The notes under the pieces are model-generated. The model was not told the origin of the DNA, did not search any database, and was given only the letters and a program-made list of their open reading frames with translations. A stretch of 64,000 nucleotides of DNA, from NCBI GenBank assembly GCA_903813345.2, contig CAIIXF020000004.1, positions 18,339,513 to 18,403,512 of the forward strand. Reading direction: 5' to 3'. The stretch comes from Owenia fusiformis. Its lineage: Eukaryota > Annelida > Polychaeta > Sabellida > Oweniidae. Shown piece by piece: positions 7,101 to 27,834 of the stretch; positions within the stretch are counted from its first letter, which is position 1; each line of letters opens with the position of its first letter. Position numbers and translations under genes: made by a program.

Positions 7101-10100
7101 ATTTTCAAAATGACTGTTGGTACCATATTAACCCCTATCCCCTTCCCACCCCTTTTTGACTAAATCCCTTCCCATCCCCTAGTCCTTTCCTAATCCCTTC
7201 CCACACCTAACCCCATCCCCTAGGCAACCACTTACCCTTCCATTGCCCGACTCCATTGTCCATCCTGTGACCATCCCTTTGCTTTGCCCACCCCTTGTTT
7301 AAATACCATCCCTGGCAATACAATTACAAAAAGCACAACTTTTAAAGTTGGAATTTCACCATACTAAAAGTAGTAATATGTAATGGGATTTATAAATTAA
7401 TATCATTTATTGCTTATTCCATATAAAGTCAAAATGGATTCAGCATTCAATCAATCATACTTATTTCTTGAACATGTATGATGAGGTGAAAAATAATGCA
7501 AATAAACTTGTATAAAAAGGCCAATTAAGAGGATTGAAGGTGCCGAAAATATCCAAAACCGGGTAGATGTATTAAGCAGATTTAATCTGTCTTAAATGTA
7601 TCTAAAGAAGTCTTTAGCATTTGGATTTAATCACTCCTGACTATTAGAAGAGTTAGAAGAATTGTAATCCTGGCCAAGTCTAGATTGGAGGTTGATGTAT
7701 ATTGAAGCAGTAGATGTGTCACTGTATTCATATTGCTACACATTTTTGCAAGGGAATTGTTGACTGATATAATACTTAATGAAAGACTTAATTGTATTAG
7801 TAACTGCTATACCAATGAAGGAACTCTCACCAGGTTAACTTTTAATACCATGTGAATTGGAAAGGGGGCATATTATTGACAAGATAACCTTATAAATCAA
7901 GGGAATGTCCTTATATCAAGTCAGAAATGTTGTCACTTTTTAGGAGATAGACACAACATAGACCCTGTGCCCTGAAAACTGTTCTCTGTACTCTCATATC
8001 GTCTATATCCCTTCTTGTTTCTATGTTAAGCCTTTTCAACTATGTGCATATATATACATACATATTTTGTTTATAGGGGGTATCCCTGACTTCAGAGAGT
8101 GAACCTAGTCAACCACTCGCTACCCCTACCACCACAGTGTTCAGTCTAACCAAAGAGCTAGAACACTCCTTGGACCTACACAGTGCCACTAGAGGGGAGA
8201 GTGTCATTAGTACAGAGGTGAGTCTAACCAAAGAGCTAGAACACTCCTTGGACCTACACAGTGCCACTAGAGGGGAGAGTGTCATTAGTACAGAGGTGAG
8301 TCTTAAACCAAAGAGCTAGAACACTCCTTGGACCTGCACAGTGCCACTAGATGGGAGAGTGTCATTAGTACGGAGGTGAGTCTAACCAAAGAGCTAGAAC
8401 ACTCCTTGGACCTACACAGTGCCACTAGAGGGGAGAGTGTCATTAGTACAGAGGTGAGTCTAACCAAAGAGCTAGAACACTCCTTGGACCTACACAGTGC
8501 CACTAGAGGGGAGAGTGTCATTAGTACGGAGGTGAGTCTAACCAAAGAGCTAGAACACTCCTTGGACCTACACAGTGCCACTAGAGGGGAGAGTGTCATT
8601 AGTACAGAGGTGAGTCTAACCAAAGAGCTAGAACACTCCTTGGACCTACACAGTGCCACTAGAGGGGAGAGTGTCATTAGTACGGAGGTGAGTCTAACCA
8701 AAGAGCTAGAACACTCCTTGGACCTACACAGTGCCACTAGAGGGGAGAGTGTCATTAGTACGGAGGTGAGTCTAACCAAAGAGCTAGAACACTCCTTGGA
8801 CCTACATAGTGCCACTAGAGGGGAGAGTGTCATTAGTACAGAGGTGAGTCTAACCAAAGAGCTAGGACACTCCTTCGACCTACACAGTGCCACTAGAGGG
8901 GAGAGTGTCATTAGTACAGAGGTGAGTCTAACCAAAGAGCTAGAACACTCCTTGGACCTACACAGTACCACTAGAGGGGAGAGTGTCATTAGTACAGAGG
9001 TGAGTCTAACCAAAGAGCTAGAACACTCCTTGGACCTACATAGTGCCACTAGAGGGGAGAGTGTCATTAGTACGGAGGTGAGTCTAACCAAAGAGCTAGA
9101 ACACTCCTTGGACCTACACAGTGCCACTAGAGGGGAGAGTGTCATTAGTACGGAGGTGAGTCTAACCAAAGAGCTAGAACACTCCTTGGACCTACACAGT
9201 GCCACTAGAGGGGAGAGTGTCATTAGTACGGAGGTGAGTCTAACCAAAGAGCTAGAACACTCCTTGGACCTACACAGTGCCACTAGAGGGGAGAGTGTCA
9301 TTAGTACGGAGGTGAGTCTAACCAAAGAGCTAGAACACTCCTTGGACCTACACAGTGCCACTAGAGGGGAGAGTGTCATTAGTACGGAGGTGAGTCTAAC
9401 CAAAGAGCTAGAACACTCCTTGGACCTACACAGTGCCACTAGAGGGGAGAGTGTCATTAGTACGGAGGTGAGTCTAACCAAAGAGCTAGAACACTCCTTG
9501 GACCTACATAGTGCCACTAGAAGGGAGAGTGTCATTAGTACGGAGGTGAGTCTAACCAAAGAGCTAGAACACTCCTTGGACCTACACAGTGCCACTAGAG
9601 GGGAGAGTGTCATTAGTACAGAGGTGAGTCTAACCAAAGAGCTAGAACACTCCTTGGACCTACATAGTGCCACTAGAGGGGAGAGTGTCATTAGTACAGA
9701 GGTGAGTCTAACCAAAGAGCTAGAACTTATTTGACACTCAGTGCCATTAAAGGAGAAAATGTTGTTACGTACAAAGGAAAGTCTGACCAAGGATCAAGAC
9801 CTATTAATACTCCCAAATTTAAAGCTTTTAAGTGTTTTAATGGTAAATAGTGTGGAGATAATGTTATTGTGTTTCAATTTGTTTAGACAAAATATCAATA
9901 ATTATTATATCACTATCTAGCTAGCGACAGTATGATTGGTCAAAACCGGGTCACATGTCGTGGGATATCTGGCGATATTCAATGGCAATGCTAATCAGAT
10001 AAGACAACCGTGAGATATCTAGCGATATCCCATGCTCCCGGGAATTTTCAAAGAATTTGTTTTCGTTCAGTGTAAACAATTTAGTTCAGTGTAAGTCAAA

Positions 10101-13100
10101 ATGGCAGACGAACCGAGTAGATTCGTAAAAATATATATATTTCAATGTTAACCTATGACTTAATAATATTAGGGATGTTTAGCTAGACAGTGATATAAAA
10201 AAACAAATATTTCACTCTATTTTCGGTGAATACCTGTAGCACTTTCACAAGGTGATATTCCACTTGCCCTTCGGGCTTCGTGGAATATCACTTGTGAAAG
10301 ATGTACAGGTATTCACCTCAATAGAGTGAAATATTTGTTCAATATGCTTAACTCCTATGTTTACAAGTTGTTGTTCAATTTCCAAATAGGTAGAGCTACA
10401 CTTACATGTAATGTTGTTAATGGTTGCTATGATGACATGGTTGCTATGGTTTTTAAGGTTGCGGATGCTGCAGCTCCCGAAGCCAATACATCGGAGGATC
10501 ACCATGGTGATCAGGGTGAGAAGGATAGATCAGATGAATTCCAACTAGTTGTACGTAATTTAGACACGGGTGAGATGATGCCAGTAGATGTAATAGAAGA
10601 GACACTTGCCAGGCAGGCCCAGGCAAAAGCAAAACCAGGTAGACTTACCGTATATCCATCTAAAATCTGGGATGATGGTCATTGCTCTCAGATCTATGTG
10701 TGGTTTGTATTTTTCACAAGCTGGTATTATATTTACAGTATATGTTAAGATCCAGTTCATGCAGAACTGAGACACTCAATAACTCTGTTTAAGTCAAAAA
10801 TGCAAAATTCACAATTTCTGGTGCTGTTTTCAGTACCACAATACAATTTTCAAAACATTCTTCCATTGGTAGCTTTCCATCATTTGTAGACTGCATTAAC
10901 CAAAGTATTGTATATTACAGGCTCTTTAGATGGTAATCTGACACTAGAAGCAGCAACAAACATCCATTCACCAAACTCAAAGTCAAATTCTCTTCCAAGA
11001 CCACGCTCAAATTCTGGCAGGTTTTTATCAGATAAGGTAATTTTATGTGTTATTTAATCTAATAGATCAAAACCTGATCATATTAGGGCATCTAAATTTT
11101 CAAAGAAGAGTGAGTTTTTCCATCATACACACAGAGGCTCACTTTAAATGTGTTTGCACTGTAGGGGGGGGGGGTTATGTGGTAATAATGCATAACAACC
11201 CTTTATCTCTATATACATGTTGACATTTACACTTCGATCATGAGTTCCATGATTCAATTATACATGGTGTTTATGTAGGAAATCTTGGAGGCAATCACTG
11301 TGTTAAATCTTGACACTGGAGAGATCATTCCATTGAGTGTAGCAGAGGAGAAACTGCCCCAATGTGTCAACCCCATGGCTTTACATATTATGAGGCGTAC
11401 CAAAGAGTACTCAAGGTAAGCAGAATCGATTCACCTGATAGACACAATATTGTAAAAGCTTGTAAAATTTTTCATGTTTGGAGTATGTATTGCGATTAGA
11501 GTACAGTACATGTATTGATAGACATTTATAGCTTTAATATACTATTTTGGCAACAGAGGATGTGATTATAACCCTTATGATTGTTTAAATTTTGTAATTT
11601 GCAATAACTTAATAAGAAGTATACTTTATTGTGAACACATTGACAACATGTTTCCATGGCAATGAATAGTAGAATAGTGATTACTCTTAAAACTGGTTGT
11701 AATATAGCAACAATAAATTGAGAAAAATCTTGAGCATAGTAAACCATTGTATTTGTTTAATATGTTCCAGTGGGTCAAGTTTGCACCGTGAGCGCCAAAG
11801 TGACGATGATGATGATGAGGATCATGGGAAATTACATGCAGCTGCAATGAAAACTGGAAAGGAAGTGAAGAAAAAAACGTAAGATTCAAGTCTTCCAAAA
11901 TACTATTCAAGGGGCTATAAAGTAATCTTTGTTGGAGCATTCTCGTTAAAATATAATCATAAACAGTTACTATTTCATGGCTGTAATATTATTAACTTGC
12001 ATTAAAATACGTTATTTTTATAATCTGAATGAATGATTCTTATTCCAGGATAAAAATCAAGAAATTCTTGGGGAAAACTGTCAGTAAGATCAAGTCTAAA
12101 GCTGATGAAGGTAAACTTTCTTACTTTATTATATTTATGTACCGAATATATTAATTGAGATAAAATAGACAGTAGGTACCTGTAGGCTTCTCTTATTAAG
12201 ATATACTAGACTCTACACATTGAGATGAAGTAGACAATAAATATTGAGGCACAGTAGACTTGACACATCAATTGAGATAAAGTAGACGATACAGTCTACA
12301 CATTAATAAGACAAGATAAACTAAATTGTTTCCTTAAAATTGTGTGACTGGTCTCAACCAATGGGTAGGCTCAGCCATGACCATATGGTTCACTCCAAAA
12401 ATATATCTGAAAGAACAGGTTTGTTGTTTTTAGTTCTCCATGACGACAGCTCATCTGATGAAGAAGTGATAGATGGCAAACTTGCATTCTATAAGGTAAC
12501 AAAATACGCATACACATTCCTAGCAGGCATTTAATCAATTACAGCTTTTCTTGTTTTCAAACCTTTTATTTACTGTGTGTGTCATACTGGGTGAATTAAC
12601 TGCTTACATTCTGCTGGAATCATTTAACATGTTACTAATAATACTTACAGAATTGTGATAGAACTACAAGTTGATGCATGAACACGAATCTCATGATGCT
12701 TGATACTATATTTATTTAACATGATCATTTTAACACTAACATTTCAAGTCAAAGTGCATGTACATTTAAACCATCATGCCTTTTGGACCTTAAACATTTT
12801 CCTTTTTTGAATCTTAAACATTTTCCTTTTTGAATCTTCTGGAGCTTTTTGAGTTTCTCTATTTTTCAATACTTGAGCTGTCCAGAATATTTAATTTCTA
12901 GTCTGCCACTGGTAGTACAAGTAGTTTGAAATCCACCAAGAGTTTGAAACATGGTGTCTCGAAAGCCACTCTCTCCCGGAGACAGTCCAAATATTATGGG
13001 AGCTCTAATGAGCTGATATTTGAGGTATTTCTCTCTAGATTAGGAGTGGTATGGAATGGAGAAAATATAACTGGTACTTTGAGAGTTCACAATATAGAGA

Positions 13101-16100
13101 AATCTTTGCAATTTGTTTCTCCCCAATTCTGTTCCATTCCATGCCAGCTCTAATGCTGTAGGAATATGAACACAACCCACTCATTTACTATGCACTATGC
13201 CGCATAGAATATTCCCAGTAAGGCCATTCTTCTATTCTAGTTAGGTAGTTTATCTCAAAGGTGGATCTTTGCATGACACTGACCTGACCACAAAGCTTTC
13301 CTAAGTCAATTTATCTATATAACCCTTGTGTTCATTGAGATATGATCTTTATACTTTCTGCATAGATACTCACAAATCTTCACACTCTGCATGATATTCC
13401 CAAAGCTTGACACTTTTTGCATAGATGCTCATATTTTATGACACTTTCTGCATAGATGCTCATATATTATGACACTTTCTGCATAGATGCTCATATTTTA
13501 TGACACTTTCTGCATAGATGCTCAAATATTTTGACACTTTCTGCATAGATGCTCATATATTATGACACTTTCTGCATAGATGCTCATATACTTTGACACT
13601 TTCTGCATAGATGCTCATATTTCATGACACTTTCTGCAAAGATGCTCATATACATGTATTATGACACTTTCTGCATAGATGCTCATATTTTATGACACTT
13701 TCTGCATAGATACTCATATATTATGACACTTTCTGCATAGATGCTCATATTTTATGACACTTTCTGCATAGATGCTCATATTTTATGACACTTTCTGCAT
13801 AGATACTCATATATTTTGACACTTTCTGATTTAATGCTTAATATTTTGATACTTTCTGCATAGATGCTCATATATTTTGACACTTTCTGATTTAATGCTT
13901 ATATATTTTGACACTTTCTGCATGGATACTCATATATTTTGACACTTTGTGCATTAGATGCTCATATATTTTGGTACTTTCTGCATAGATGCTCATTGCT
14001 CATATATTTTGACACTTTCTGATTTGATGCTTATATATTTTGACACTTGGCATGGATGCTCATATTTTTTGACACTTTCTGAATTGATGCTCATATATTT
14101 TGACACTTTCTGCATAGATTCTCATATACTTTGACACTTTCTGCATGGATGCTCATATATTTTAACAATTTCTGAATTGATGCTGATATACTTTGACACT
14201 TTCTGAATTGATGCTCATATATTTTGACACTTTCTGAATTGATGCTCATATATTTTGACACTTTCTGAATTGATGCTGATATACTTTGAATTTTTCTGAA
14301 TTGATGCTCATATATTTTGACACTTTCTGAATTGATGCTCATATATTTTGACACTTTCTGAATTGATGGTCATATATTTTTACACTTTTCGAATTGATGC
14401 TCATATAATTTGACACTTTCTGAATTGATGGTCATATATATTTACACTTTTCGAATTGATGCTCATATAATTTGACTCTTTCTGAATTGATGCTGGGCTT
14501 TCCCTTTTGCAAAGATTCTCCAAAGAATCAGATTTTCGTGAATTTATATTGCTCTGTAAATGTATCATTTTGGTTTCATATTTTTCTCCTTGAAATTAAC
14601 CAATTAGACATTGGTAGGGCTACAATTGCCAAAATACCACACCTCATGAATTTGTAAATACCCTTGAATAATCTGCATACCAAGTGATATCAATTTTATT
14701 TGCATTGTTAAAACTTGTATTTCATTACTTTCAGATCAAAGCTTCCAGGAACAACAAAGGACCATATGACTTCTTTGGTATAAAACCTGTCCAGGATCTT
14801 GGAACTAATAATGTAAGTATGGAACAAGAGGGTTGGTTTGGAAATGAAATGAGACATTTATTCCATTCTGTGCCAGCCCTATGTAAAATGAATGGGTAAA
14901 ACACAAGTTCATGTCACAACCAAGAAGTGACAATTATTGTAATGATCCTTTGAACCCACTGGGCTCAAGACATCATCCATACATTTAACCCTTTAATATA
15001 TATGTCCAGCATCTGTATTAGAATTGTTACATTTTTGCAACTATTTGCAATAACTAAAAAAGGTTATGTTGAGAAACTTTATATGAAGCATCCTTTTATG
15101 TAACGGTATGTAGAGCCACTTGTGACATCACTGGTCTATAAACATCAACAACATGGCAATGGAAACACCCTTGCTATGAGTATCCATGCTCACTCTACAA
15201 AACTAAGCCGTGACGTCATAACAATGGAGTTTTATTGTCGTGTGTATCTAATAGTATGTATTTTCTACAATATTGTTATGACGTCATAACAATTGAAAGA
15301 TGAAGTTCCATTAATCTGAAGCTATTTTCACCCAGTTTTGTCATGAAATCTTGAAATTATGGCATAATACAGAGTCATGAGAAAAACTTTCTTGTACTCA
15401 TACCTGCGCAATATCTTTCATCCTTGACTCGCTTTGATAATGTTTCTTTATCTTGTCTGCGACTCGATAAAGAAGAATTTTCAAAGCTCATCAAGAATGG
15501 AAGATCTTGCACAGGTATTCACATAAGAACCTTTATATTATGTTTCAAGTATGAGCTTCAGATCAAATACATGTAGGTGTGCATGTGCATGCATAAATCT
15601 ATAAGATACAATAGATATTTGATGATTTTCAGGGTGCTGTATGGACTATGAAGTTCTCACACTGTGGCAGGTTGTTGGTAAGTAAAAGTTGTTATAAAAA
15701 CAAAATTGCCCGGTGACTTGTTTTCCTTGTATACAAATTGAGATGCCAAAAATTAGTTTCAGCAAGTAACGTTATTTAGCTTTGAAAGTTGTGAATAATT
15801 CATAAAGTTAAACTCCAAATATGGATTTTTTTGTGAATTATTTAGAAAATAGTAATGTATTATTTTAGGCCACAGGAGGACAAGATAGTGTTATAAGAAT
15901 ATGGGTGCTCAAAGATGCGTATGCCTACTTTGATGATATGAGGCAGAAATACAGTGAAAGTAAGCTATTTTGATCTCTTCATCATTGCGAATATTTCAAA
16001 AGCATGAAATTGATTTATTAGGGAAAGGGTGAAGAACTGTTGTCTGTTGGGGTTTAGTTATGTTAAGTCAGGTTATTTTAAAGTGAGTACAAGTAATAGT

Positions 16101-19100
16101 TATATTATACCAGGTAAGCCATAGAACCCTTTAATATAATCATCCTCTGAAGTCACTGGGCTCAAGACATCATCCACACATTTAACCCTTTATATAATCA
16201 TCCTCTGAAGGCACTGGGCTCAAGACATCATCCACACATTTAACCCTTTAATACAATCATCCTCTGAAGGCACTGGGCTCAAGACATCATCCACACATTT
16301 AACCCTTTAATATAATCATTCTCTGAATGCACTGGGCTCAAGACATCATCCACACATTTAACCCTTTAATATAATCATCCTCTGAAGGCACTGGGCTCAA
16401 GACATCATCCACACATTTAACCCTTTAATATAATCATTCTCTGAACGCACTGGGCTCAAGACATCATCCACACATTTAACCCTTTAATATAATCAATCTC
16501 TGAACGCACTGGGCTCAAGACATCATCCACACATTTAACCCTTTAATATAATCATTCTCTGAACGCACTGGGCTCAAGACATCATCCACACATTTAACCC
16601 TTTAATACAATCATCCTCTGAAGGCACTGGGCTCAAGACATCATCCACACATTTAACCCTTTATATAATCATCCTCTGAAGGCACTGGGCTCAAGACATC
16701 ATCCACACATTTAACCCTTTAATATAATCATCCTCTGAACGCAGTGGGCTCAAGACATCATCCACACATTTAACCCTTTAATATAATGATCCTCTGAACG
16801 CACTGGGCTCAAGACAATATCCACACATTCTTTCATTCTACCAGAAGAAAGAGGTTGTTCTGGAGGCCTGTGTTTGGAGGATAATTGTAATATAATATTC
16901 ATTTGTTTGTTTCACTGTAACTGATGCTCACTTCTTTGTAATATTATCTAGGTAAAGTGTCCCCTGCACCTTCTCAGGAAAGTCTAGGCTCAATGTCAGA
17001 AACTCACTCAGAAACAGCCTCATTATCAGATATTGGGGTAAGTTGATATTAATTTGTAAAATAAATTCTTGTAATATAGTTTATTTATTTGAATATCAAT
17101 ACAGGACAAAACATTATTGGTCATGTAATGAAAATATTTTGTTATAAGTACTGATGCTGAATCTTCAACAGATGGAGAACAATGCCACTGTTTTCAGTAC
17201 CACTGCCCTGTGGAACTGGAATATATGAAAAGATTGAAGCATGGACTAAGATTTTATATTACTGCTTCTCTTGGCAAGTTCTTTCATTATATACTTGACC
17301 ATGCTTCAATCTGATTCATAGATACACCTGTAAATGTTGATTTAGAGATCAGTTTCACAGTGCATGCATGTGCATGTCATAGCATTCAGTTTTGCCTGTT
17401 TCCTCACAATGGACCGAAGCTGTAAATTGATTCATGGTTTACCTTGATTTTATTTTGCATTTAGTCTTTCAGTTTCTTATCATACTACAATAATAATACA
17501 TAATGATCAGGTCGGTAGGTACCCTGCTACATAATATAGTACAATATAATTAATTGTCAAATTGACAATAATTTGATTCGATGAACATATGCATGATTTA
17601 GGATGGAGATTCCGAGAGTAAGGCAAAAGAGACGAGCGTAGAAGAGGAAGAGGAGGTACTATATTGTATATGTATATTCAAGGAGAACTCTGGCATTTCT
17701 CTAATTTCATCACTAATATACACTGCATTTTCTCTAATCTTACAATCTTACATCACACTTTCAAGGATGGGGTCATACTGTATTTGCATTTTGGAAAATC
17801 TGTCCAGTGTGAACCCTAGCTTCATAATGGAACAGAATGTCCATTCAAGAATATATGGCCATACTGTGTAAGAATATCATACTGTGCTGTGTACAATTTA
17901 TGCTCCAGACTTGTCACTGTATATGTGCCTATTGAAATCTAAAAAGTAAACTTCTGAAGACACAGATATGTTAACAAATCACTCAGTTAGGCAACATTCT
18001 GAGAAATGCCTTACACTCTTTTACAGTAGACACAAACAGCACCGCATCACAGATTCATGGATCTGGTTGCATGGGAAAGGGAAATCATGTGTGACTATCT
18101 TCCAAATCACTTTTTGGGGCTATTGGTATTTAACATTATTATGCACCTCATTAAAATACTCAAATCTGATTGGTTCTTAGTTGCTTGTAATTTGGCAATA
18201 CTCTGCTCTTTTCTGAAAACTGCCGGATATTTTTTTAATATCTGACCCTTTCGAGAAAAAGGGTCGGATATTTTTTTCAATGTTTTTACAACATTCCCAC
18301 TTCAGAGTTTTATTTCTTAATAACTAGAGTACTACTTAAAGCTTACATCTGAAACTGGCGGAAAATAGGAGAAAAAAATGCACTTAATCAATCACAATTA
18401 CCCTTATAATTCAAAAGTTACATATAATTATGCAAGAACGTCTCGAATAAATAAAAATTAAATTCCCGGGGCAAATATTTTTGTCCAGTGTAGCGAATAA
18501 ACTGGCCGGAAGTCGTCTGAGTTTTGAAAGAAAAAATAAATAAATGTCAAAATAATATCAACTAAACGACAGTTTAAGCCTGTACTCCAGTAAGTAGGGC
18601 TACTCCACTTAACTTTGATTGGGAGGTGCCGCCTCGCCCAATATTTTTTCTCGAATAGGTATTCTGCCATATCCAGCTCCTGATCATCCAGTATTTGTTT
18701 AGTATACATGTACTCTTTGACAGTATACACCTATGATTACCAGTTGCATTTGCTGCAATTGTAACTGTCGTGACATTTGGCATTGTTGGGCCTGAACTTT
18801 TTCTCTTCTTGATTTAATTGATTTTAACTTGTAGACCTATATTTCAAATAATTTCATTTAATATTTCAGGCTACTGGCTTTGGGGATTATGTAGAATTAC
18901 ATTAATATGTTTATTCTTAAGTGCACTTGAGCTAACTTTTGTAATGTCATTTTAATATTGGTTTTCATCTTCCCTTTTTCTTCTCTACTCAGATCTAAAT
19001 CTAAACTATGTTGGTAACATCTACAACTGATTTTGTAAATAAATAACAGCTCCTAATTTACAAGTTATTACTTTTATGTTTGATATAATATCTCTGTGAT

Positions 19101-22100
19101 TGTATTTGGGTAAGTTAGGAAAAACTGCCACAAGAGGCCTAGTGGTTTGTCAATTTTAGATTTTGAATAACTAGTTTAATTTCTGATTGTGGAAGAGGCT
19201 CAGAATAACGTAGATCAATTTCTGTTTTGTAGTAGTGACTCAAAATCAGAATGCATATTGTCTCAATTATATCACAAGGCTAATTGAATATTTGTTAATG
19301 CTAATATTTCTTTGGAAGTTTTGAAGCAGACAGACTGGCCACTTATGACTCTTATGTTAAAACAATTATTGTGACACCATGTATTTATAAAAATTCTTTT
19401 TATGTTTCAGGCTGTTGGTGGTGAGGAAGATGAAGATCGTCACGCACCATTTGTTAGAAAGCCATTTTGTATTTACCGTGGCCATACAGCGGATGTACTG
19501 GATATATCTTGGTCTAAGGTACTTTCAATTTCAGCTGTTGATCATAAAGAATTATTGTCTTACTTTAAATTGTCAATCATAAATAACACTGTCCTTTGAG
19601 GTCCATATGTCAAACAACATCATTTACACCATTTATACAATACAAAGCAATTACTTACTATCCTATATCTGATTATTATCCCATCGAACGAAATTCGGAG
19701 GGATATAGGGAACGCCTCCGTCCGTCTGTCTGAATTTATCTTTGTGGAAAGATTGTATGCTTCAGTTGCTCTTTAACAAAACATGTGGGACAGTGTATCT
19801 ATATATTACAAGATGTCCGTACGTACGTCTGTCCGTCCGGGCAACAACTCAAATACTGTTGCCCGATTTTGTTCATATTTTGTACACATATACCCTATGG
19901 GGGTAGAAGTTCTGCTCGAAAGCTGATTTTCAAAATAGCCGCTCATTTAAAAATGGCGGCCATTTTAGTGCTGATTTTACAGTAGTTTAGGTGCAATATG
20001 TAAAACTGTAATAGCAATATGTTTTAAATGTAAAAAAATTATATAGGACATTAATAAAGCTAGAAATGTAGATATTAAAGAAGCACATGGCAGCCATCTT
20101 GAAAAATGGTGGCATTTACTCGTTATTTTACGATTTTTGCTGTAACTTTAAAAGTAGTGGAGTGATTTTGTTCATATTTGGTATGTGAATGCTATAAGCA
20201 TGGCACACTGGTTAATGACAATTTTGGTAGAAGGTGGCCATTTTAACATAATTTACTATAACTCAAAAATTAGTGGAGCGATTTTGATCATATTTGGTAT
20301 GTGAATACTATAAGCATGGCACACTGTCTAATGACAATTTTGGTAGAAGGTGGCCATTTTGCTGTTGTGTAGTTTAGAATTACTTTACAATATAGCCCAT
20401 TCATATCCTAATTTTATCTAACTCCATCCGATCTTGGATGGATTTCTCATCCTAGATCGATTAGGTATCAGAATTAAAGTGCCTTTTCTGTTTTTCAGAA
20501 TTACTTTGTCTTATCTTCCTCCATGGATAAGACTGTTAGACTGTGGCATGTGTCCAGAAAGGAATGCTTATGTTGTTTCCAACATATTGACTTTGTTACT
20601 GCCATAGCGTTCCACCCAAGGGTGAGCATACTCATTATATACTACATTCTCCCAACATATTGACTTTGTTACTGCCATAGCGTTCCACCCAAGGGTGAGC
20701 ATACTCATTATATACTACATTATCCCAACATATTGACTTTGTTACTGCCATAGCGTTCCACCCAAGGGTGAGCATACTCATTATATACTACATTCTCCCA
20801 ACATATTGACTTTGTTACTGCCATAGCGTTCCACCCAAGGGTGAGCATACTCATTATATACTACATTATCCCAACATATTGACTTTGTTACTGCCATAGC
20901 GTTCCACCCAAGGGTGAGCATACTCATTATATACTACATTATCCCAACATATTGACTTTGTTACTGCCATAGCGTTCCACCCAAGGGTGAGCATACTCAT
21001 TATATACTACATTATCCCAACATATTGACTTTGTTACTGCCATAGCGTTCCACCCAAGGGTGAGCATACTCATTATATACTACATTCTCCCAACATATTG
21101 ACTTTGTTACTGCCATAGCGTTCCACCCAAGGGTGAGCATACTCATTATATACTACATTATCCCAACATATTGACTTTGTTACTGCCATAGCGTTCCACC
21201 CAAGGGTGAGCATAACTTGTCTTTACATTCTTAATCTCAGGTCTATTGTATTGTAAGAACAAGTTATAGGTTATATTAATTCTTTTAACCTTGGTGTCAT
21301 CCAGAAGTCACCAGAAGTGGTGACATATGGTGATAGTTTCCAACTGTGGATGGTGTTCGATGTTTGGCGGTCGATGTTCTGAGTTTGGTGTGACATTTTG
21401 CATGTTAATGCCTAGTTTTAATTTTGGCACTGAGCTCCTTGCTTATGAACATGTTCTTTAGACAAAATGTTTTGTTTTAAGCTGTACAAAATCATGTTCC
21501 TTTAGCATTAAATCACACCTAAATCATTGAGACTTGTGCTTGCTTAAAGTCCTTTAATATAGCTCAAAATTAGTGGTAAACAAGTCTTTATTCATGCAGG
21601 CCCATAGCAGAAAATTGAAAATTGTCAAATTCTATTGGACTTTTTTGAAAACTGAACCCCCTTGGCAAAAACTGGCTACTGGCCTTAGAACTGACACTAT
21701 TGATGTGCTTTCTATCACAATACTGAAGATTCCTTTCTCACTTCAGGATGACAGGTATTTCCTGAGTGGATCCCTAGATGGTAAGCTAAGACTCTGGAAC
21801 ATTCCCGACAAGAAGGTGGCGCTGTGGAATGAAGTGCGTGATGGCTCAACGCGGCTCATTACAGCCGCAAACTTTTGTCAAAATGGAAAATTTGCAGTAG
21901 TAGGCACTTATGATGGGAGGTGTATATTCTTTATAACTGAGGTGAGTTTACTAGAATTATCAGTCTAGCCTTGCTTCGTGACTCTGGACCCCCTTCCCCT
22001 TGTAGTGGTGGTGTTGTGTAATGTTGGGGGTTCCCAAAGGTGTGTAGCGAGACAACTGTCAGTTATTTATTGGTTCACTTTGATTCATTATAAGCTGTAT

Positions 22101-25100
22101 TCAAAAATTGCCACTTGTGACCATATTCAATACCTCATTACTCCTACTCAAATTTTAATATTTCAAAATGTGATGCAATATTCGATGGAGAATATTTCAG
22201 AATGAATTTGCAGGCCCCCTTAAAGAATCTGAATCTACCTTTTCCAGTAATTATCCGAACTTCCCTCATTTTGAGTTATTTTTTGCATTATTTCAATAAT
22301 TTATCGTTTTTTTGATTACCTAAGATATTTCAGGTACATGTAAAGATAGAAATATATGAGATCTATAACTTTATCTTGATTAATAAAGACTAAGAATATA
22401 AAAAAACGATCTATTAGATGGGCGATAATGTTTGCACTTTGCAAACAAAAGATGACCATTAAATTGACGATGTGTAAAATTTACAGAACTTTTTGATGAC
22501 TGGTTTAAGAGAAACGTGTGTTCAAAAAGTTCACCATATCGATACCCATCCTTTGGAAATTTTCATCAAATTCATTGTTAAGTGGCACCAAAATCGGGAA
22601 ACCCCTTCATGATAAAGCACTTCTATGGATACATATAGAACTAATAGAAACCTAATCTTAAAATCTTAAAATGCCGAACACTTTTTCAGTACACCAAACT
22701 ACATATGGCAGGATATTTTTATTATAACAGGTTCATTTTGTGTTTCTGTGTGATACCTTAAATAGTCTTCTGACAGGCCAGCCATGAGCTTCTTAATTAT
22801 TGAATTGATAAAACAATCGACTGGCAATATTTGCACAGGGAGGTCAGGAAGTGCTTTGAAATATCAATAAGTACTGCAGATAAGTGATGCCCTTACAAAG
22901 GATTCATCTGGATTGGAACAAAACAACACATACATGTATGGAAACATTTACACAGTTTATTGCATACATGTATTTAGAAATCTCACATTTGATTTCAATT
23001 AAGGATATAATAATTATACTATTTCTGAAATGGTTTTCCTCCCTCTCTATGATGTTTGATAAGTTTGTACACATGCAAACAAGCAGTGAGTAAATATACC
23101 ATTTGCAAGGTTAGATCAATATCTGATGTGATAAATTAAATATTCAAATGAAAAACAAACACTTCAGCATCATGTATTAATTTATCTGAGCAGTGTGTAA
23201 GGTAGGAGATATAGCTCAGTGGTAGAGCATTCGACTGCAGATCGAGAGGTCCCTGGTTCAAATCCGGGTGTCTCCTTCAGTTTTTTCAGATCAGATATTT
23301 TAGAATTTGTATTTCAAGGGCTATAATTTTATTATTTTCATAATATGTATTGGTGTTGTCAATTTTTTCAAATTGAATCTGCTCGATTTGATATATGATG
23401 CAATACCTTCCGTGTTTATATTGCTAAGGTTAAGACCCTTTTTAATGCAAATAATATAATGAATATTTCAGAAAAATGCGCAAATGGCGTAACTAAGAAT
23501 TACCAGTATATAAAAAATGCCAAATATCATAGTGTTATGATTTTTCAAGAGATCCTAGAATGATTGAATCAATTATGCAGAAATTATGACAGATGTAATG
23601 TTTTTATCGTACCTAACAAGAGGTACGATATTGTAGTCAGCTTGACGGGCGGCGGGCGGGCAGGCGGCGTCTCGCTTTTCAGCTTGTCTACAGGTTTCCA
23701 GCCAAACCATTTGAGGGATTCATCTGAAATTTTCAGGGATGTTTCTACATATCAAAGTCAAGAACTGATTAGTTTTTGGGCATTCTGGGTAAATTTTAAG
23801 GTGGCCATTTTGGATTTTCCGTCCTAAAATCTTCACTTTCAAGACTTGTCTACAGGTTTTCAGCCAAACCATTTGAGGGATTCATCTGAAATTTTCAGGG
23901 ATGTTTCTACATATCAACGTCAAGAACTGATTAGTTTTTGGGCATTCTGGGTAAATTTTAAGGTGGCCATTTTGGATTTTCCGTCCTAAAATCTTTACTT
24001 TCAAGACTTGTCTACAGGTTTCCAGCCAAACCTTTTGAGGGATTCATCTGAAATTTTCAGGGATGTTTCTACATATCAACGTCAAGAACTAATTAGTTTT
24101 TGGGCATTCTGGTTAAATTTTAAGGTGGCCATTTTGGATTTTCTGTCCTAAAATCTTCACTTTCAAGACTTGTCTACAGATTTTCAGCCAAACCATTTGA
24201 GGGATTCATCTGAAATTTTCAGGGATGTTTCTACATATCAACGTCAAGAACTGATTGGTTTTTGGGCATTCTGGGTAAAGTTTAAGGTGGCCATTTTGGA
24301 TTTTCCATCCTAAAATCTTCACTTTCAAGACTTGTCTACAGGTTTCCAGCCAAACCATTTGAGGGATTCATCTGAAATTTTCAGGGATGTTTCTACATAT
24401 CAACGTCAAGAACTGATTAGTTTTTGGGCATTCTGGGTAAATGTTAAGGCTGCCATTTTAGATTTTCCGTCCTAAAATCTTGTCTCGAGGCTTGTCTACA
24501 GGTTTCCAGCCAAACCGTTCAAATTTTTATTACATATGTTACACAGTGATAAGTTCTAGAGCTGATTAACTTTTTCTGCGGCCATCTTGCTTTCTTGGTC
24601 AACAAGACCACAATGCTGTGTTTTAGGTACGATATTGTTCACGTCTGTGCCTTGTTCTCCTATTTTGGCAATGTTAAATAGTGTTATTGTGACAGCCATT
24701 GATTTCGAAAATCATAGCAAACTCAACTTTATAACTGTGTTACCCATGTTGTTTAAAAGTATTGTTCATTTGTTGTTGATATTATTAATTTTTACGAAAG
24801 TTTGTTAAATGTATGTAGCCTGATTTTAACCTATTACATATCTTGTGTCTTTTAGCAACTGAAATATTTCACACAGATCCATGTGAGATCAACCAGGGGC
24901 AAGAATGCTAAAGGACGCAAGATCAGTGGAATAGAGCCACTACCAGGGGAGGATAAGGTTTGTCAATCAGTTGTATGATCCTTCCTAATAAAACACTTCA
25001 TAAATGGTCATTTGCATTATAGTAAACACAGCCTCATGTATGATTCAGAGGATAACAAGAAACACATAATATAAATTCAAGGCAATGCTTCTGTGCTGCT

Positions 25101-27834
25101 GATGTCATTGTTTAGTTGGATTGTCAATAAACTGTATTTCAAATGGTTTATTTTATGATGCTATCATTGTTTTACTAATACTGTATGTCTGTATTCTAGA
25201 TGGTGTTAGTAATCGTTTTACTCATTAACATAAATTCTATACCTCAGTGATGTCATTGTTTTACTGATCTGTCTATATTGTCATTGTTTTACTGATTTGT
25301 CTATACTCCAGGTCTTGGTGATGTCATTGTTTTACTGATTTGTCTTTATTCCAGGTCTTGGCGATGTCATTGATTGACTGATTTGTCTATATTGTCATTG
25401 TTTCACTGATTTGTCTATATTCCAGGTCTTGGTGATGTCATTGTTTGACTGATTTGTCTATATTCCAGGTCTTGGTGATGTCATTGTTTGACTGATTTGT
25501 CTATATTCCAAATCTTGATGATGTCATTGTTTTACTGATTTGTCTATATTCCAGGTCTTGGTGATGTCATTGTTTGACTGATTTGTCTATATTCCAGGTC
25601 TTGGTGATGTCATTGTTTGACTGATTTGTCTATATTCCAGGTCTTGGTGATGTCATTGTTTGACTGATTTGTCTATATTCCAAATCTTGATGATGTCATT
25701 GTTTTACTGATTTGTCTATATTCCAGGTCTTGGCGATGTCATTGATTGACTGATTTGTCTATATTCCAGGTCTTGGTGATGTCATTGTTTTACTGATTTG
25801 TCTTTATTCCAGGTCTTGACGATGTCATTGATTGACTGATTTGTCTATATTGTCATTGTTTCACTGATTTGTCTATATTCCAGGTCTTGGTGATGTCATT
25901 GTTTGACTGATTTGTCTATATTCCAGGTCTTGGTGATGTCATTGTTTGACTGATTTGTCTATATTCCAAATCTTGATGATGTCATTGTTTTACTGATTTG
26001 TCTATATTCCAGGTCTTGGTGATGTCATTGTTTGTCATTGATTTGTCTATATTCCAGATCTTGGTGATGTCATTGTTTGACTGATTTGTCTATATTCCAA
26101 ATCTTGATGATGTCATTGTTTTACTGATTTGTCTATATTCCAGGTCTTGGTGATGTCATTGTTTGTCATTGATTTGTCTATATTCCAGGTCTTGGTGATG
26201 TCATTGTTTGACTGATTTGTCTATATTCCAAATCTTGGTGATGTCATTGTTTGACTGATTTGTCTATATTCCAGGTCTTGGTGATGTCATTTTTTGACTG
26301 ATTTGTCTGTATTCCAGGTCTTGGTGATGTCATTGTTTGACTGATTTGTCTATATTCCAGGTCTTGGATCAAATTGACTGATTTGTCTATATTGACATTG
26401 TTTGACTGATTTGTCTATATTCCAGATCATCTTGGTGATGTCATTGATTGACTGATTTGTCTGTATTCCAGATCTTGGTGATGTCAATGTTTGACTGATT
26501 TGTCTATATTCCAGGTCTTGGTGATGTCATTGTTTGACTGATTTGTCTATATTCCAGATCCTAGTGACATCCAATGACTCCAGGATTCGACTCTATGACC
26601 TGAGAGACCTGAGTCTGACTTCCAAATACAAAGGTTGTGCCAATAATAGCAGTCAAATAAAATCCAGTTTTAGGTAAGTTGTTGTATACATTGTACCAGA
26701 TCACTTATTTTTCTATATGGTTGAAATTTGCAAAATAAAGAATGTCATCCTAAAAACTGTGATATTCTGATGACAAAAAGCAGAATATTTCAAAAGTTAG
26801 TGATGTAAATTACCAGTATTGACTCCCCATAGTTGAGACAATAAACAGTTTTCATTTGTCTGAAAATGATTGACAGACAGATGGATGGGCGAGTGGGTCA
26901 TGGCACAGCTCACTCTGTGATATGTGAGCCGAAAACTGTTGTAAAAATGGAAAATTGAGTTTTCAAAAAAAAATTCTTTCTTAATTTTTGTTTTGGTTGT
27001 ATTCAACGTACAGTGTACATGTACATTAAATGTATCAGTTCACAAAACCTGTTAGAGATCAGTCTTTCCATGTGGGTCTAAGGACAATTGCTGAAAACTT
27101 ATCACATACAAAATTATAAACATGTTGGGTATTTTTTCCAGTTCCAATGGTAAATACATCATCTGTGGCAGTGAAGACCACTTTGTGTACATCTGGAAGA
27201 CGAATCATGATAATCATAAGTTCACCTCAGCCAGGAGAGACAGGAATGCATACTGGGAGGGCATCAAAGGTTAGTTTCATATGTCTGCTTCAGTGTGACA
27301 ATAAATCACTGACTTGTCACCAATCACTATATTTCGAATATAAACATTATCTACAGGGAATAAAACTTGTTGCATTGTCATTTACTTGATATATTTATGG
27401 TTATCCTGTTAGTTTTCTCTTTCAACTGTTAATGGAATATGAAAGTGGTAGTTCCTGATGTAACTACTTTTTATTAACTTGTTAAACCGTTCAATTTGAA
27501 CACCTCAAGGCTCTTAATACTATAAAATGAACACCTATAAACTATAGTTTTACTACACATGAGTGCTCACAGTTTTACCATATCATCATTCTGTTTTACA
27601 TCAGCGCACACAGCAGTTGTCACGGCAGCCATCTTTGCACCAAACCCTGCTCTCATTATCAAACCTAAAGAGGGCACCACTGAACAGGTTGATAATGAGC
27701 GCAAGCGCAAGAATGATAAGCAAGAAGGACCAGGAGAGGTGCTAGTATCAGCTGATTTCACTGGACTTGTTAAAGTGTTTGTTAATAAAGTGAAGAGTAA
27801 AGAGACAGTGGCAACCTCCAAACATAAACACTGA
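1121..27834 (+). CDS. WDR44: WD repeat-containing protein 44 orthologue (24 coding exons)
   Basis: WDR44/rabphilin-11 is a Rab11-binding adaptor of endosomes and export tubules; in vertebrates it also binds VAP proteins at the ER. Exons with GT-AG borders join in frame: 1121-1194, 5596-5626, 5916-6089, 6440-7012, 8077-8217 (or 8295), 10458-10638, 10921-11036, 11279-11415, 11771-11878, 12049-12110, 12434-12495, 12902-13024, 14735-14812, 15633-15677, 15869-15959, 16952-17037, 17602-17655, 19411-19518, 20499-20621, 21747-21941, 24856-24957, 26558-26673, 27142-27269, 27605-27834. They total 3,138 nt (1,045 aa; 1,071 with the longer exon 5) against about 910 aa in vertebrates. Layout: FFAT-like motif near residues 9-17, Lys/Glu-rich coiled coil about 40-120, proline-rich motifs about 125-284, NLDTGE blocks about 355-450, a basic KKFLGK segment near 515, and WD40 repeats about 600-1040. 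Homology, especially in the WD region, is recognised from family knowledge. No transcript evidence was available, so small cassette exons could differ. Confidence 0.95.
2064..2111 (+). repeat. orphan copy of the 78-bp exon-5 repeat unit in intron 1
   Basis: 48 bases nearly identical (one clear mismatch) to the exon-5 unit, from ctagaacactcc to gagagtgtca, six kilobases upstream of the array and outside any exon. Confidence 0.85.
2763..2929. mobile_element. hairpin MITE-like element
   Basis: Arms beginning acaattgtagacctctcc and ending ggagaggtcaacaattgt are inverted copies, with a second inner hairpin around ttgacctcgaccttcggtc. Non-coding; flanking duplication not resolved. Confidence 0.6.
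3889..5257. mobile_element. non-autonomous Tc1/mariner-like element with TA duplication
   Basis: Terminal inverted repeats of about 190 bp (caaggggtgatcaac... and its complement) bound 1,369 bp. TA dinucleotides flank both ends (3887-3888, 5258-5259), as expected for Tc1/mariner integration. No transposase is readable. A smaller hairpin (4205-4304, cagttatgtccctatcattg and its complement) is nested inside. Confidence 0.8.
5263..5362 (-). mobile_element. fragment of the 33.8-kb MITE family
   Basis: The stretch with ggccttttataatttaggga is the reverse complement of the centre of the elements at 33798-34186 and 34366-34759. Confidence 0.65.
5596..5626 (+). CDS. WDR44: WDR44 exon 2
   Basis: A 31-nt microexon ([11 protein letters not shown]) between tttag and ctg|gtaagt. 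It accepts phase 2 from exon 1 and ends in phase 0. Confidence 0.8.
5916..6089 (+). CDS. WDR44: WDR44 exon 3 (coiled coil)
   Basis: 58 codons, phase 0-0, very rich in Glu/Lys/Arg with heptad-like spacing ([14 protein letters not shown]...), predicted as a charged coiled coil. Acceptor ctctag, donor cta|gtaagt. Confidence 0.85.
6440..7012 (+). CDS. WDR44: WDR44 exon 4 (end of coiled coil, proline-rich region)
   Basis: 191 codons, phase 0-0. It completes the charged helix, then carries the proline motif RPPPKPPR and near its end APPRRKKKP, separated by a low-complexity Ser/Asn/Glu-rich linker. In vertebrate WDR44 the proline-rich region binds SH3 partners such as GRAF proteins. Confidence 0.88.
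8077..8217 (+). CDS. WDR44: WDR44 exon 5 (source of the 78-bp array)
   Basis: 47 codons, phase 0-0, after acceptor tttatag. Its end, [17 protein letters not shown], resembles the SLDLASATSGDK segment of vertebrate WDR44. The donor gag|gtgagt at 8218 is the first of about 20 identical donors. An alternative in-frame exon reaches 8295 and adds 26 residues. Beyond that a 2-bp insertion in copy 3 brings a stop at 8317-8319, so later donors cannot give a full protein. Confidence 0.75.
8140..9729 (+). repeat. 78-bp exon-derived minisatellite with a splice donor in every unit
   Basis: About 20.4 copies of a 78-bp (26-codon) unit. Each unit ends in gag and is followed by gtgagt, a perfect 5' splice site. 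Copies 1-2 can be read in frame with exon 5. Copy 3 has a 2-bp insertion near 8303-8308, after which the remaining 18 copies form a 468-codon open frame that is out of phase with the exon. Copies differ by only a few substitutions, so the array is young or homogenised. Confidence 0.95.
10203..10339. mobile_element. palindromic hairpin element
   Basis: Near-perfect inverted repeat: arms run from aacaaatatttcactctat to its complement, with the centre near cttgcccttcgggcttc. A MITE-like element in intron 5, immediately upstream of exon 6. Confidence 0.75.
10458..10638 (+). CDS. WDR44: WDR44 exon 6 (first NLDTGE block)
   Basis: 60 codons plus 1 nt, phase 0 to 1. It encodes [18 protein letters not shown], a copy of the motif repeated in exon 8. 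Acceptor ttttaag fits phase; a better-looking ccaaatag at 10388 does not. Donor cag|gtagac. Confidence 0.7.
10921..11036 (+). CDS. WDR44: WDR44 exon 7
   Basis: 116 nt, phase 1 to 0. It contains [10 protein letters not shown], which matches the [11 protein letters not shown] segment of vertebrate WDR44 just before the NLDTGE block. Acceptor attacag, donor aag|gtaatt. Confidence 0.88.
11279..11415 (+). CDS. WDR44: WDR44 exon 8 (main NLDTGE block)
   Basis: It encodes [19 protein letters not shown] followed by [11 protein letters not shown], near-identical to the conserved core of vertebrate WDR44 within the Rab11-binding part. Phase 0 to 2. Confidence 0.92.
11771..11878 (+). CDS. WDR44: WDR44 exon 9
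   Basis: 108 nt, phase 2 to 2. It encodes an Asp-rich tract ([10 protein letters not shown]) then a Lys-rich end. Acceptor gttccag, donor aac|gtaaga. Confidence 0.85.
12049..12110 (+). CDS. WDR44: WDR44 exon 10 (KKFLGK segment)
   Basis: 62 nt, phase 2 to 1. It encodes [17 protein letters not shown], matching the basic LKKFLGKSVKRAK stretch of the vertebrate protein. Confidence 0.9.
12434..12495 (+). CDS. WDR44: WDR44 exon 11
   Basis: 62 nt, phase 1 to 0, encoding [11 protein letters not shown], comparable with the DDPSSSDDEG acidic stretch ahead of the WD domain in vertebrates. Acceptor gtttttag. Confidence 0.85.
12902..13024 (+). CDS. WDR44: WDR44 exon 12 (possible cassette)
   Basis: 41 codons, phase 0-0, Ser/Lys/Arg-rich, with good borders (tttctag; gag|gtattt). 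I see no vertebrate counterpart. Because it is symmetric it could be skipped without changing the frame. Confidence 0.65.
13407..14494. repeat. intronic minisatellite, about 30-31 bp unit
   Basis: Around 35 copies of a unit like gacactttctgcatagatg + ctcatatttt in intron 12. The 5' half mostly has 'gcatagatgctcatat' and the 3' half shifts to 'gaattgatgctcatat', showing two subfamilies. Confidence 0.92.
14735..14812 (+). CDS. WDR44: WDR44 exon 13 (entry to the WD40 domain)
   Basis: 26 codons, phase 0-0, with [17 protein letters not shown] matching the KGPYDFDQIKVVQDL lead-in to the first WD repeat. Acceptor ctttcag, donor aat|gtaagt. Confidence 0.92.
14940..15000. repeat. single diverged copy of the 60-bp repeat
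   Basis: Contains gggctcaagacatcatcc and atttaaccctttaatata, the same sequence that is tandemly amplified at 16124-16830. It lies in intron 13. Confidence 0.8.
15633..15677 (+). CDS. WDR44: WDR44 exon 14 (WD repeat 1)
   Basis: 15 codons, [15 protein letters not shown], nearly identical to the vertebrate sequence. Acceptor tttcag, donor ttg|gtaagt. Confidence 0.93.
15869..15959 (+). CDS. WDR44: WDR44 exon 15 (WD repeat 1)
   Basis: It encodes [19 protein letters not shown] and ends in phase 1. It closes the first WD40 blade (the IRIW position corresponds to the usual WD dipeptide). Confidence 0.93.
16124..16830. repeat. intronic minisatellite, about 60-bp unit
   Basis: About 12 copies in intron 15 of a unit that includes cactgggctcaagacatcat and ccacacatttaaccctttaa. 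Variants have atcctctgaaggc or attctctgaacgc. There is no spacer variation. Confidence 0.92.
16952..17037 (+). CDS. WDR44: WDR44 exon 16 (phospho-rich loop)
   Basis: 86 nt, phase 1 to 0, with [20 protein letters not shown], matching RVSPSPSQESLSSS in vertebrates. A Ser-rich inter-blade loop. Confidence 0.9.
17602..17655 (+). CDS. WDR44: WDR44 exon 17 (acidic cassette)
   Basis: 18 codons, phase 0-0, [18 protein letters not shown]. Acceptor atttag, donor gag|gtacta. Short and symmetric, so it may be alternatively spliced. Confidence 0.65.
19411..19518 (+). CDS. WDR44: WDR44 exon 18 (WD repeat 2)
   Basis: 36 codons, including [20 protein letters not shown], with the conserved GH dipeptide of a WD blade. 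Acceptor gtttcag, donor aag|gtactt. Confidence 0.93.
19690..20345. repeat. degenerate 'TCCGTCCG' type interspersed repeat
   Basis: Intron 18 contains a gtccgtccgggcaacaactc region followed by two about 119-bp tandem copies around ggtatgtgaatgctataagc / ggtagaaggtggccatttt. It looks like a decayed interspersed element. No coding. Confidence 0.5.
20499..20621 (+). CDS. WDR44: WDR44 exon 19 (WD repeats 2-3; source of the 73-bp array)
   Basis: 41 codons with [19 protein letters not shown] and [14 protein letters not shown], near-identical to vertebrates. The last 44 nt plus the donor agg|gtgagc and 24 nt of intron are repeated eight more times downstream. Confidence 0.94.
20578..21213 (+). repeat. 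73-bp minisatellite made from the exon 19 end plus its donor
   Basis: Nine copies (first one being the exon itself) starting at 20578, 20651, 20724, 20797, 20870, 20943, 21016, 21089 and 21162. Each carries 44 nt of exon 19, the donor agg|gtgagc and intronic catactcattatatactac. Copies are almost identical, alternating only 'attct'/'attat'. Confidence 0.96.
21596..21686. mobile_element. copy of the GCAGGCCC(G/A)TAGCC family
   Basis: Inverted ends gcaggcccatagc and ggctactggcctta enclose a short non-coding stretch. Related copies lie at 45681-45767 and about 56215-56370. Confidence 0.5.
21747..21941 (+). CDS. WDR44: WDR44 exon 20 (WD repeats 3-4)
   Basis: 65 codons, including [20 protein letters not shown] and [18 protein letters not shown], the most conserved part of the family. 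Acceptor cttcag, donor gag|gtgagt. Confidence 0.95.
23205..23276 (+). tRNA. tRNA-Cys (GCA)
   Basis: 72 nt forming a full cloverleaf: acceptor GGAGATA/TGTCTCC, D arm GCTC-AGTGGTA-GAGC, anticodon loop CTGCAGA with GCA at 23237-23239, T arm CCTGG-TTCAAAT-CCGGG (one wobble pair) and discriminator T as usual for cysteine. It delivers cysteine to UGC/UGU codons. It lies in intron 20 of WDR44 on the same strand, with internal A and B boxes and a T6 terminator five bases downstream. It looks intact and functional. A tRNA-derived SINE is less likely, since no tail is evident. Confidence 0.95.
23281..23286 (+). terminator. RNA polymerase III terminator of tRNA-Cys
   Basis: A run of six T directly downstream of the tRNA, the usual Pol III stop. 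Confidence 0.75.
23693..24520. repeat. 162-bp tandem repeat, five copies plus a partial
   Basis: Units begin cttgtctacaggtttccagc at about 23693, 23845, 24007, 24169, 24331 and 24491. A GC-rich gacgggcggcgggcgggcag stretch precedes them, and ggtacgatattgt occurs on both sides (about 23620 and 24626), suggesting one mobile unit. Confidence 0.88.
24856..24957 (+). CDS. WDR44: WDR44 exon 21
   Basis: 34 codons with [20 protein letters not shown] and [10 protein letters not shown], matching the vertebrate linker to blade 5. Acceptor ttttag, donor aag|gtttgt. Confidence 0.93.
25243..26557 (+). repeat. 43-bp minisatellite made from the exon 22 acceptor
   Basis: About 30 degenerate copies of ctgatttgtctatattccag followed by gtcttggtgatgtcattg. 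The second part is a diverged copy of the exon 22 start (atcctagtgacatccaatga). The array runs right up to the true acceptor. Several units have 'ccaaat' in place of 'ccaggt', losing the AG. Confidence 0.92.
26558..26673 (+). CDS. WDR44: WDR44 exon 22 (WD repeat 5; source of the 43-bp array)
   Basis: It encodes [20 protein letters not shown] and ends in phase 2. Its acceptor attccag and first codons are the template of about 30 degenerate copies lying just upstream. Confidence 0.94.
27142..27269 (+). CDS. WDR44: WDR44 exon 23 (WD repeat 6)
   Basis: 128 nt, phase 2 to 1, encoding [18 protein letters not shown] and [14 protein letters not shown], matching the SGSEDKYVYIW and RDRNDFWEGIKA stretches of vertebrate WDR44. 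Confidence 0.94.
27605..27834 (+). CDS. WDR44: WDR44 exon 24 (terminal coding exon)
   Basis: 76 codons including the TGA at 27832-27834. [17 protein letters not shown] and [17 protein letters not shown] close the propeller, as in the family C-terminus. Acceptor catcag. Confidence 0.94.

What the first reader, a model, noticed from the sequence alone, without database searches (positions are those of the whole stretch)
8140..26557. Three exon borders of one gene each turned into a minisatellite that carries splice sites
Within WDR44, the donor edge of exon 5 (78 bp), the donor edge of exon 19 (73 bp) and the acceptor edge of exon 22 (43 bp) have each been tandemly amplified, always spanning the exon-intron junction and always expanding into the intron. 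One such event could be chance slippage; three in one gene, beside true consensus splice sites, suggests a common process such as junction-targeted duplication, or selection for splice-site redundancy. I know of no described class of 'splice-junction minisatellites'.
Basis: partly seen in the sequence, partly recalled or inferred. Interest (0 to 1): 0.85.

Follow-up and report, generated by a model that had tools for sequence, protein, structure and literature searches.

The report
Minisatellites grown across splice junctions ("mirages")
Three edges of coding exons in one gene have each been copied many times in tandem together with their splice sites; the arrays are real, but this kind of repeat was already described in amphioxus as "mirages", and similar arrays turn up at other genes of the same, probably non-chordate, genome.

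Summary
Observation confirmed: three arrays (78 bp x20, 73 bp x9, 43 bp x about 30) each span an exon-intron junction of a WD40 gene, with a splice site in nearly every unit, and lie on the intron side of the site that keeps the coding frame. Within this gene alone, three junction hits among seven arrays is marginal (0.94 expected, P=0.053). The claim of an undescribed class is wrong: such arrays were named "mirages" in amphioxus, and human CBS has one. What is added here is breadth. The 13 strong-donor arrays sampled elsewhere in this 498-Mb genome look like coding-exon ends: 7 of 13 have Pfam support, 11 of 13 pass one of two tests, two rest on my reading. Of 40 isolated copies of the same word, 4 have Pfam support. 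Per word, however, arrays are not commoner than for control words. Splice cores are not better conserved than the rest of the unit (0.050 vs 0.039 changes per site), which speaks against selection for redundancy. Best reading: ordinary minisatellite growth, tolerated because splicing discards the extra copies; junction-biased birth is possible but unproven. New member of a known kind.

The parts
8077..8217 (+). coding exon whose 3' part (from about 8143) and donor GAG|GTGAGT are repeated
   Evidence: exon score p=0.016
8143..9726 (+). array 1: 78-bp unit x20.3, one strong donor per unit
   Evidence: 22 genome matches listed, all in this window: 20 in the array, one decayed copy beside it, one stray copy (that search scores only the best candidates)
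9730..9813 (+). decayed copy or copies of the 78-bp unit on the intron side
   Evidence: local alignment score 62, maximum 34 in 300 shuffles
20499..20618 (+). coding exon (WD40-like by reading) whose 3' part and donor are repeated
   Evidence: the exon classifier does not support it (p=0.492)
20579..21214 (+). array 2: 73-bp unit x8.7, donor AAGG|GTGAGC; a spacer of about 21 bp lies between units and is absent from the right flank
21747..21940 (+). next exon, joins in frame to the first donor of array 2
25097..25250 (+). decayed copies of the 43-bp unit on the far (intron) side of array 3
   Evidence: alignment score 88, maximum 77 in 300 shuffles
25249..26557 (+). array 3: 43-bp unit, 30 copies aligned, most with TGACTGAT (branch-point-like, by recall of the consensus) and TATTCCAG acceptor; some copies have lost the AG
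26558..26672 (+). coding exon that follows the last acceptor of array 3
   Evidence: p=0.082
2064..2112 (+). stray 49-bp piece of the array-1 unit, 98% identical, about 6 kb upstream

Best explanation
These are 'mirage' minisatellites. A short tandem duplication happened to straddle an exon-intron junction; it was tolerated because the spliceosome, using the outermost copy of the site (first donor or last acceptor), still makes the same mRNA; the surplus copies are then intron and grow, shrink and homogenise like any other minisatellite. Shown: the anatomy, the frame argument, decayed copies at the intron-side edges of arrays 1 and 3, similar arrays at coding exons elsewhere in this genome, and splice cores that are not better conserved than the rest of the unit. 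Inferred: which copy is spliced in the cell, the neutral growth, and the slippage or unequal-exchange mechanism.
For: Arrays and frames. Decayed outer copies, as expected when edges escape homogenisation. 13 donor-word arrays elsewhere: 7 of 13 exons with Pfam hits at E<=0.05 (Tetraspanin 0.027, Muted 1e-14, Rieske_4 2e-7, Neur_chan_LBD 2e-15, ECH_1 4e-5, AAA_2 2e-27, Pkinase 2e-4), 10 of 13 with exon-classifier p<0.05, 11 of 13 with one or the other. Acceptor word: 11 arrays, 3 with a fitting Pfam hit (C2 9e-12, MoCoBD_2 0.011, TPR_28/GBF1-like 0.04). Over 13 arrays, used copies included: 141 changes at 2823 core sites vs 363 at 9429 other sites. In amphioxus, RT-PCR suggests that mirages do not disturb splicing (passage of PMC3087553).
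Against: No RNA data, so use of the outermost site is not shown. Three of seven arrays in one gene is somewhat above the uniform expectation (P=0.053). The share of real exon ends among donor-word arrays is higher than among isolated words (see rival 1). In 5 of 13 arrays the core is less variable than the rest.
Confidence: 0.7

Rival explanations
1. Junction-biased birth: tandem duplication starts more often at splice junctions than elsewhere, for instance through transcription- or splicing-coupled DNA damage or template switching in the germ line.
For: Donor-word arrays have Pfam-supported exon ends in 7 of 13 vs 4 of 40 isolated words (Fisher p=0.002); classifier p<0.1 in 10 of 13 vs 9 of 40 (p=0.0007), p<0.05 in 10 of 13 vs 4 of 40 (p=1e-5). 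Acceptor word TTTTNCAGG: 78 triple matches against 5 for the reversed word, though 49 of the 78 come from one array.
Against: Per word, arrays are not commoner: period 65-67 bp, 8 arrays per 33163 donor words vs 12 loci per 69271 words of two control words (p=0.48); runs (pairs minus triples, chance pairs not subtracted) 1.58% of donor words vs 1.66, 0.95 and 0.68% of three control words. Gene-body bias is not excluded: in gene-bearing loci 4 of 11 isolated words score as exon ends, a fifth is a real donor that scored 0.131, and 10/13 vs 4/11 is not significant (p=0.095). Donor words also occur in arrays not shown to be junctions: L034 (period 46, word tested p=0.525, an inner copy) and L084.
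Confidence: 0.3
2. Selection for splice-site redundancy: the extra sites are kept because they make splicing robust or recruit U1 or U2 snRNP.
For: Many consensus donors, or branch-point-like plus acceptor modules, in each array. The core is less variable than the rest in 5 of 13 arrays.
Against: Over all 13 arrays splice cores are no better conserved (0.050 vs 0.039 changes per site), although 9 of the 13 were picked by intact donor words. The core sits at the end of the aligned unit, which may add some changes. In array 3 the core changes at 0.118 per site vs 0.043, and several copies have lost the AG.
Confidence: 0.05
3. Coding repeat expansion: in array 1 the 26-codon unit is sometimes translated, giving 26-residue repeats.
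For: The unit is 78 bp and open; donor 2 is in frame.
Against: Two extra bases in copy 3 close the frame; read-through of arrays 2 and 3 meets stops.
Confidence: 0.08
4. Assembly artefact.
For: Long near-identical arrays are prone to wrong copy numbers.
Against: Copies differ by substitutions, decayed edge copies exist beside two arrays, and similar arrays sit at other loci on several chromosome-size contigs.
Confidence: 0.03

Closest known systems
[quoted passage not shown] passages of PMC3087553; two look-ups by recalled ids for the original Adh report found nothing held)
   Same: Tandem units spanning 5' or 3' exon borders, many with AG/GT signals, edges excluded from homogenisation, units of 10-160 bp; those authors already suggest a possibly general phenomenon in cephalochordates and a route to intron gain.
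   Different: Another genome, with 12 chromosome-size contigs as suggested by the order of contig lengths, three arrays in one gene, and more than a dozen other genes sampled. Length polymorphism and RNA were not testable here.
Human CBS 31-bp VNTR c.1444_1467+7(16_21) and 844ins68 (passages of PMC2630376)
   Same: The unit runs from the exon end to intron +7, 16-21 copies; the same gene also carries a duplicated intron 7/exon 8 junction.
   Different: Human polymorphisms in one gene.
Internal tandem repeats at exon-intron boundaries of human duplicated genes (De Grassi and Ciccarelli 2009; passages of PMC2812944)
   Same: Tandem repeats at exon-intron boundaries, searched for systematically; 27 intron modifications after inspection.
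   Different: There they were linked to new introns and alternative transcripts in recent paralogs; here an existing intron keeps its other end outside the array.
Intron gain by tandem duplication of AGGT (passages of PMC3443670, and PMC2891723)
   Same: Tandem duplication plus splicing that hides it.
   Different: There the duplicated exon segment supplies both ends of a new intron; here an existing intron is lengthened.

Membership tests
Mirage (exon-intron boundary minisatellite) | tandem units that span an exon-intron boundary | tested here: met
   three arrays
Mirage (exon-intron boundary minisatellite) | both donor and acceptor borders can be affected | tested here: met
   arrays 1 and 2 donor, array 3 acceptor
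Mirage (exon-intron boundary minisatellite) | edge copies escape homogenisation | tested here: met
   decayed copies beside arrays 1 and 3; array 2 was not tested for this
Mirage (exon-intron boundary minisatellite) | normal mRNA is still made | not testable with these tools
   no RNA data; the frame argument only
Mirage (exon-intron boundary minisatellite) | copy number differs between alleles | not testable with these tools
   one assembly only
Intron gain by AGGT tandem duplication | both intron ends come from copies of one repeated AGGT | tested here: not met
   the other end of the affected introns lies outside the arrays (acceptor before 21747 for array 2, donor after 24957 for array 3; for array 1 the next mapped exon is about 10459)
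Selected splice-site redundancy | inner splice cores conserved above the rest of the unit | tested here: not met
   0.050 vs 0.039 changes per site over 13 arrays, used copies included

The most novel reading that the evidence does not exclude
In this animal, probably not a chordate, splice junctions are preferred birthplaces of minisatellites. A splicing- or transcription-coupled duplication process has seeded very many mirages, making arrays several times more likely at a real junction than at a random site of the same sequence.
Probability: 0.25. Interest if true: 0.75.

Novelty: new member of a known kind. Interest (0 to 1): 0.45.

Why it matters
The amphioxus authors treat mirages as possibly general in cephalochordates and as a model for intron gain. 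A genome with many of them outside that group would let one test directly whether minisatellite birth is tied to splicing, how the spliceosome picks one site among dozens of near-identical neighbours, and how introns lengthen and new exons or introns arise. They are also a trap for gene annotation.

Tried and rejected
Per-word enrichment of donor arrays: rejected (not distinguishable from controls). The raw excess of triple matches for the donor word (1293 vs 591 for its reverse) vanished once runs were counted as pairs minus triples (525 vs 792) and shrank once arrays were counted in a complete bin. The fourth word, TGGRTAGA, had 7 matches in that bin whose places were not listed, so it is not in the array count. 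Redundancy selection: rejected. Coding-repeat reading of arrays 2 and 3: rejected (stops, frame). Random sample: 10 stretches of 10 kb held 6 arrays of at least 2.5 copies and 90 bp; the junction test gave no call at 5 of 6, and at the sixth (L073, 297 bp) calls within what reads as a coding ankyrin repeat. Control-word arrays: of 13 loci, one gave a donor call with p<=0.1, at a T|GTGAGT site (L063); in at least 4 of the 13 (L013, L014, L066, L069) the array runs to the edge of the piece, so one flank was not seen.

Limits of the 13-array sample. L003-L008 are the arrays of the first 100 listed matches, from the start of contig C1; L006 and L055-L061 are the complete period 65-67 bp list, in which L006 and L058 enter by multiples of shorter periods. 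L008 and L055 (p=0.166 and 0.392, no Pfam) rest on my reading only. In some searches I had placed the donors of L003-L008 (in one search also of L009) one base early, and that of L060 wrongly; one search repeats the test at the right places with 300 shuffles for the 13 arrays and the 40 isolated loci, and its numbers are the ones used. For L005 and L007 the classifier's best frame is not the one that I take for the real one. The Pfam scan of the 40 isolated loci covered 37 open stretches from 28 loci; 12 loci had none of 20 codons or more. There the reverse-transcriptase hit (L018) and an HTH_12 hit at 0.048 were not counted, and L023, L034 and L038, which turned out to be a stray array copy, part of a period-46 array and a two-copy ELO junction, were kept in the denominator. 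In the acceptor set Pfam was run on 8 of the 11 loci; a ZapB hit (L085, 0.0032) was judged a coiled-coil chance match and not counted; only the 3' flanks were fetched.

Papers: searches; two searches found nothing. The prior art came from passages (and one outline), not whole texts, of PMC3087553, PMC2630376, PMC2812944, PMC3443670, PMC2891723, PMC11830802, PMC12783039 and PMC9977687. Lievers 2001, Zhuo 2007, Gao and Lynch 2009 and Hellsten 2011 were seen only as reference entries.

Full report
Observation. Array 1 (8143-9726, 78 bp x20.3) repeats the last part of exon 8077-8217 with its donor GAG|GTGAGT; array 2 (20579-21214, 73 bp x8.7) repeats the end of exon 20499-20618 with its donor; array 3 (25249-26557, 43-bp units) repeats the acceptor TATTCCAG and the first bases of exon 26558-26672. 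The coding frame is kept only by the outermost site, with one exception: donor 2 of array 1 is also in frame. The copies beyond that site are therefore intron by definition. Decayed copies sit on the intron side of arrays 1 and 3.

Chance within the gene. With a 21-exon map (40 junctions, partly by eye) and seven arrays in the gene, uniform placement gives 0.94 junction-spanning arrays; P(3 or more)=0.053, or 0.026 if the 1.9-copy array is left out. That is suggestive at most, and the finding was picked because it looked striking.

Genome-wide word test. In the 498-Mb genome G000 I counted the donor word AGGTRAGT and three control words of the same composition. Single words: 33163 (donor), 47644 (its reverse), 21627 (AGATRGGT), 23451 (its reverse). 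Runs (pairs minus triples, spacing 50-80 bp, chance pairs not subtracted): 525, 792, 206 and 160, i.e. 1.58, 1.66, 0.95 and 0.68%. In the complete list for periods 65-67 bp there are 8 donor-word arrays, 9 loci (7 sequence families) for TGARTGGA and 3 for AGATRGGT; 8/33163 vs 12/69271 gives p=0.48. So per word there is no clear excess.

What the donor-word arrays are. Six arrays from the start of contig C1 and the eight of the complete bin (one shared) make 13. By reading, all 13 look like ends of coding exons. Pfam supports 7 of 13 (tetraspanin at a weak 0.027, Muted, Rieske_4, Neur_chan_LBD, ECH_1, AAA_2, Pkinase). A home-made exon classifier gives p<0.05 for 10 of 13. Eleven of 13 pass one or the other; L008 and L055 rest on my reading. 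Of 40 isolated copies of the word at the start of C1, 4 have Pfam support, 9 have classifier p<0.1 and 4 have p<0.05; Fisher p=0.002 for Pfam, 0.0007 and 1e-5 for the classifier. A further array from a control-word list (L009) also ends a BRCT exon. Of 13 control-word array loci one gave a donor call. Arrays on a strong donor word are thus mostly true junctions, more than isolated words are. The excess depends on the unknown share of real donors among the words; in gene-bearing loci the contrast (10/13 vs 4/11) is not significant (p=0.095), so concentration of arrays in gene bodies remains a sufficient alternative. Two other arrays that hold donor words were not shown to be junctions (L034, L084).

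Acceptors. TTTTNCAGG triples (periods 63-69 bp) number 78 against 5 for the reversed word, but 49 of the 78 are one array. Of 11 arrays, several run into clear exons by reading, while L080 and L090 do not; Pfam, run on 8 of them, supports three (C2 9e-12, MoCoBD_2 0.011, GBF1-like TPR_28 0.04).

Selection. Over 13 arrays (three of the window, ten elsewhere; used copies included) the splice core changes at 141 of 2823 sites (0.050), the rest of the unit at 363 of 9429 (0.039); the core is the less variable in 5 of 13. Inner splice sites are not specially preserved, although 9 of the 13 arrays were picked by intact donor words; the place of the core at the end of the aligned unit may add some changes.

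Prior art. [quoted passage not shown] Human CBS has the VNTR c.1444_1467+7(16_21), exon end to intron +7, and the 68-bp duplicated intron 7/exon 8 junction. Tandem repeats at exon-intron boundaries were catalogued in human paralogs. The class is therefore known.

Which animal. Lengths of contigs C1-C11 fall in the order of chromosome names 1, 10, 11, 12, 2, 3 ... 8, which suggests 12 chromosomes; the length of C12 was not seen. The annelid Owenia fusiformis is reported with 505.8 Mb in 12 chromosome-scale scaffolds (passage of PMC9977687); this fits but is not proof. That cephalochordates have more chromosomes is recall.

Verdict. A real and well-seen pattern, of a known kind, found at other genes of this genome too; junction-biased birth is open, redundancy selection unlikely.

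Noticed in passing
window 2064-2112: A stray 49-bp piece of the array-1 unit, 98% identical, lies about 6 kb upstream of the array in the same orientation. A stray unit of the tetraspanin array (L003/L023) likewise lies about 0.9 kb beyond that array.
   Followed up: partly
window 42291-42864: A 42-bp (14-codon) tandem repeat inside an open frame (TSTSSSTSTTASPV-type, mucin-like) in a large von Willebrand A-like gene on the + strand (label by eye, about 39.4-61.7 kb).
   Followed up: no
L003 1982-2223: The same tetraspanin exon whose donor edge is an array also has its acceptor edge and 5' part duplicated (120 bp x2): both borders of one exon affected.
   Followed up: partly
L038 (C1:821164): A two-copy duplication of the donor edge of an ELO-family exon, perhaps an early stage of such an array.
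   Followed up: partly
L055 (C1:13516457-13519193): A 67-bp array carrying strong donor words on both strands, AGGTAAGT on one and AGGTGAGT on the other.
   Followed up: no
window 23683-24516 and 20136-20360: Tandem copies (162-bp and 116-bp units, both with a GTGGCCATTTT motif) in introns of the same gene; they look like dispersed repeats, which was not tested.
   Followed up: no
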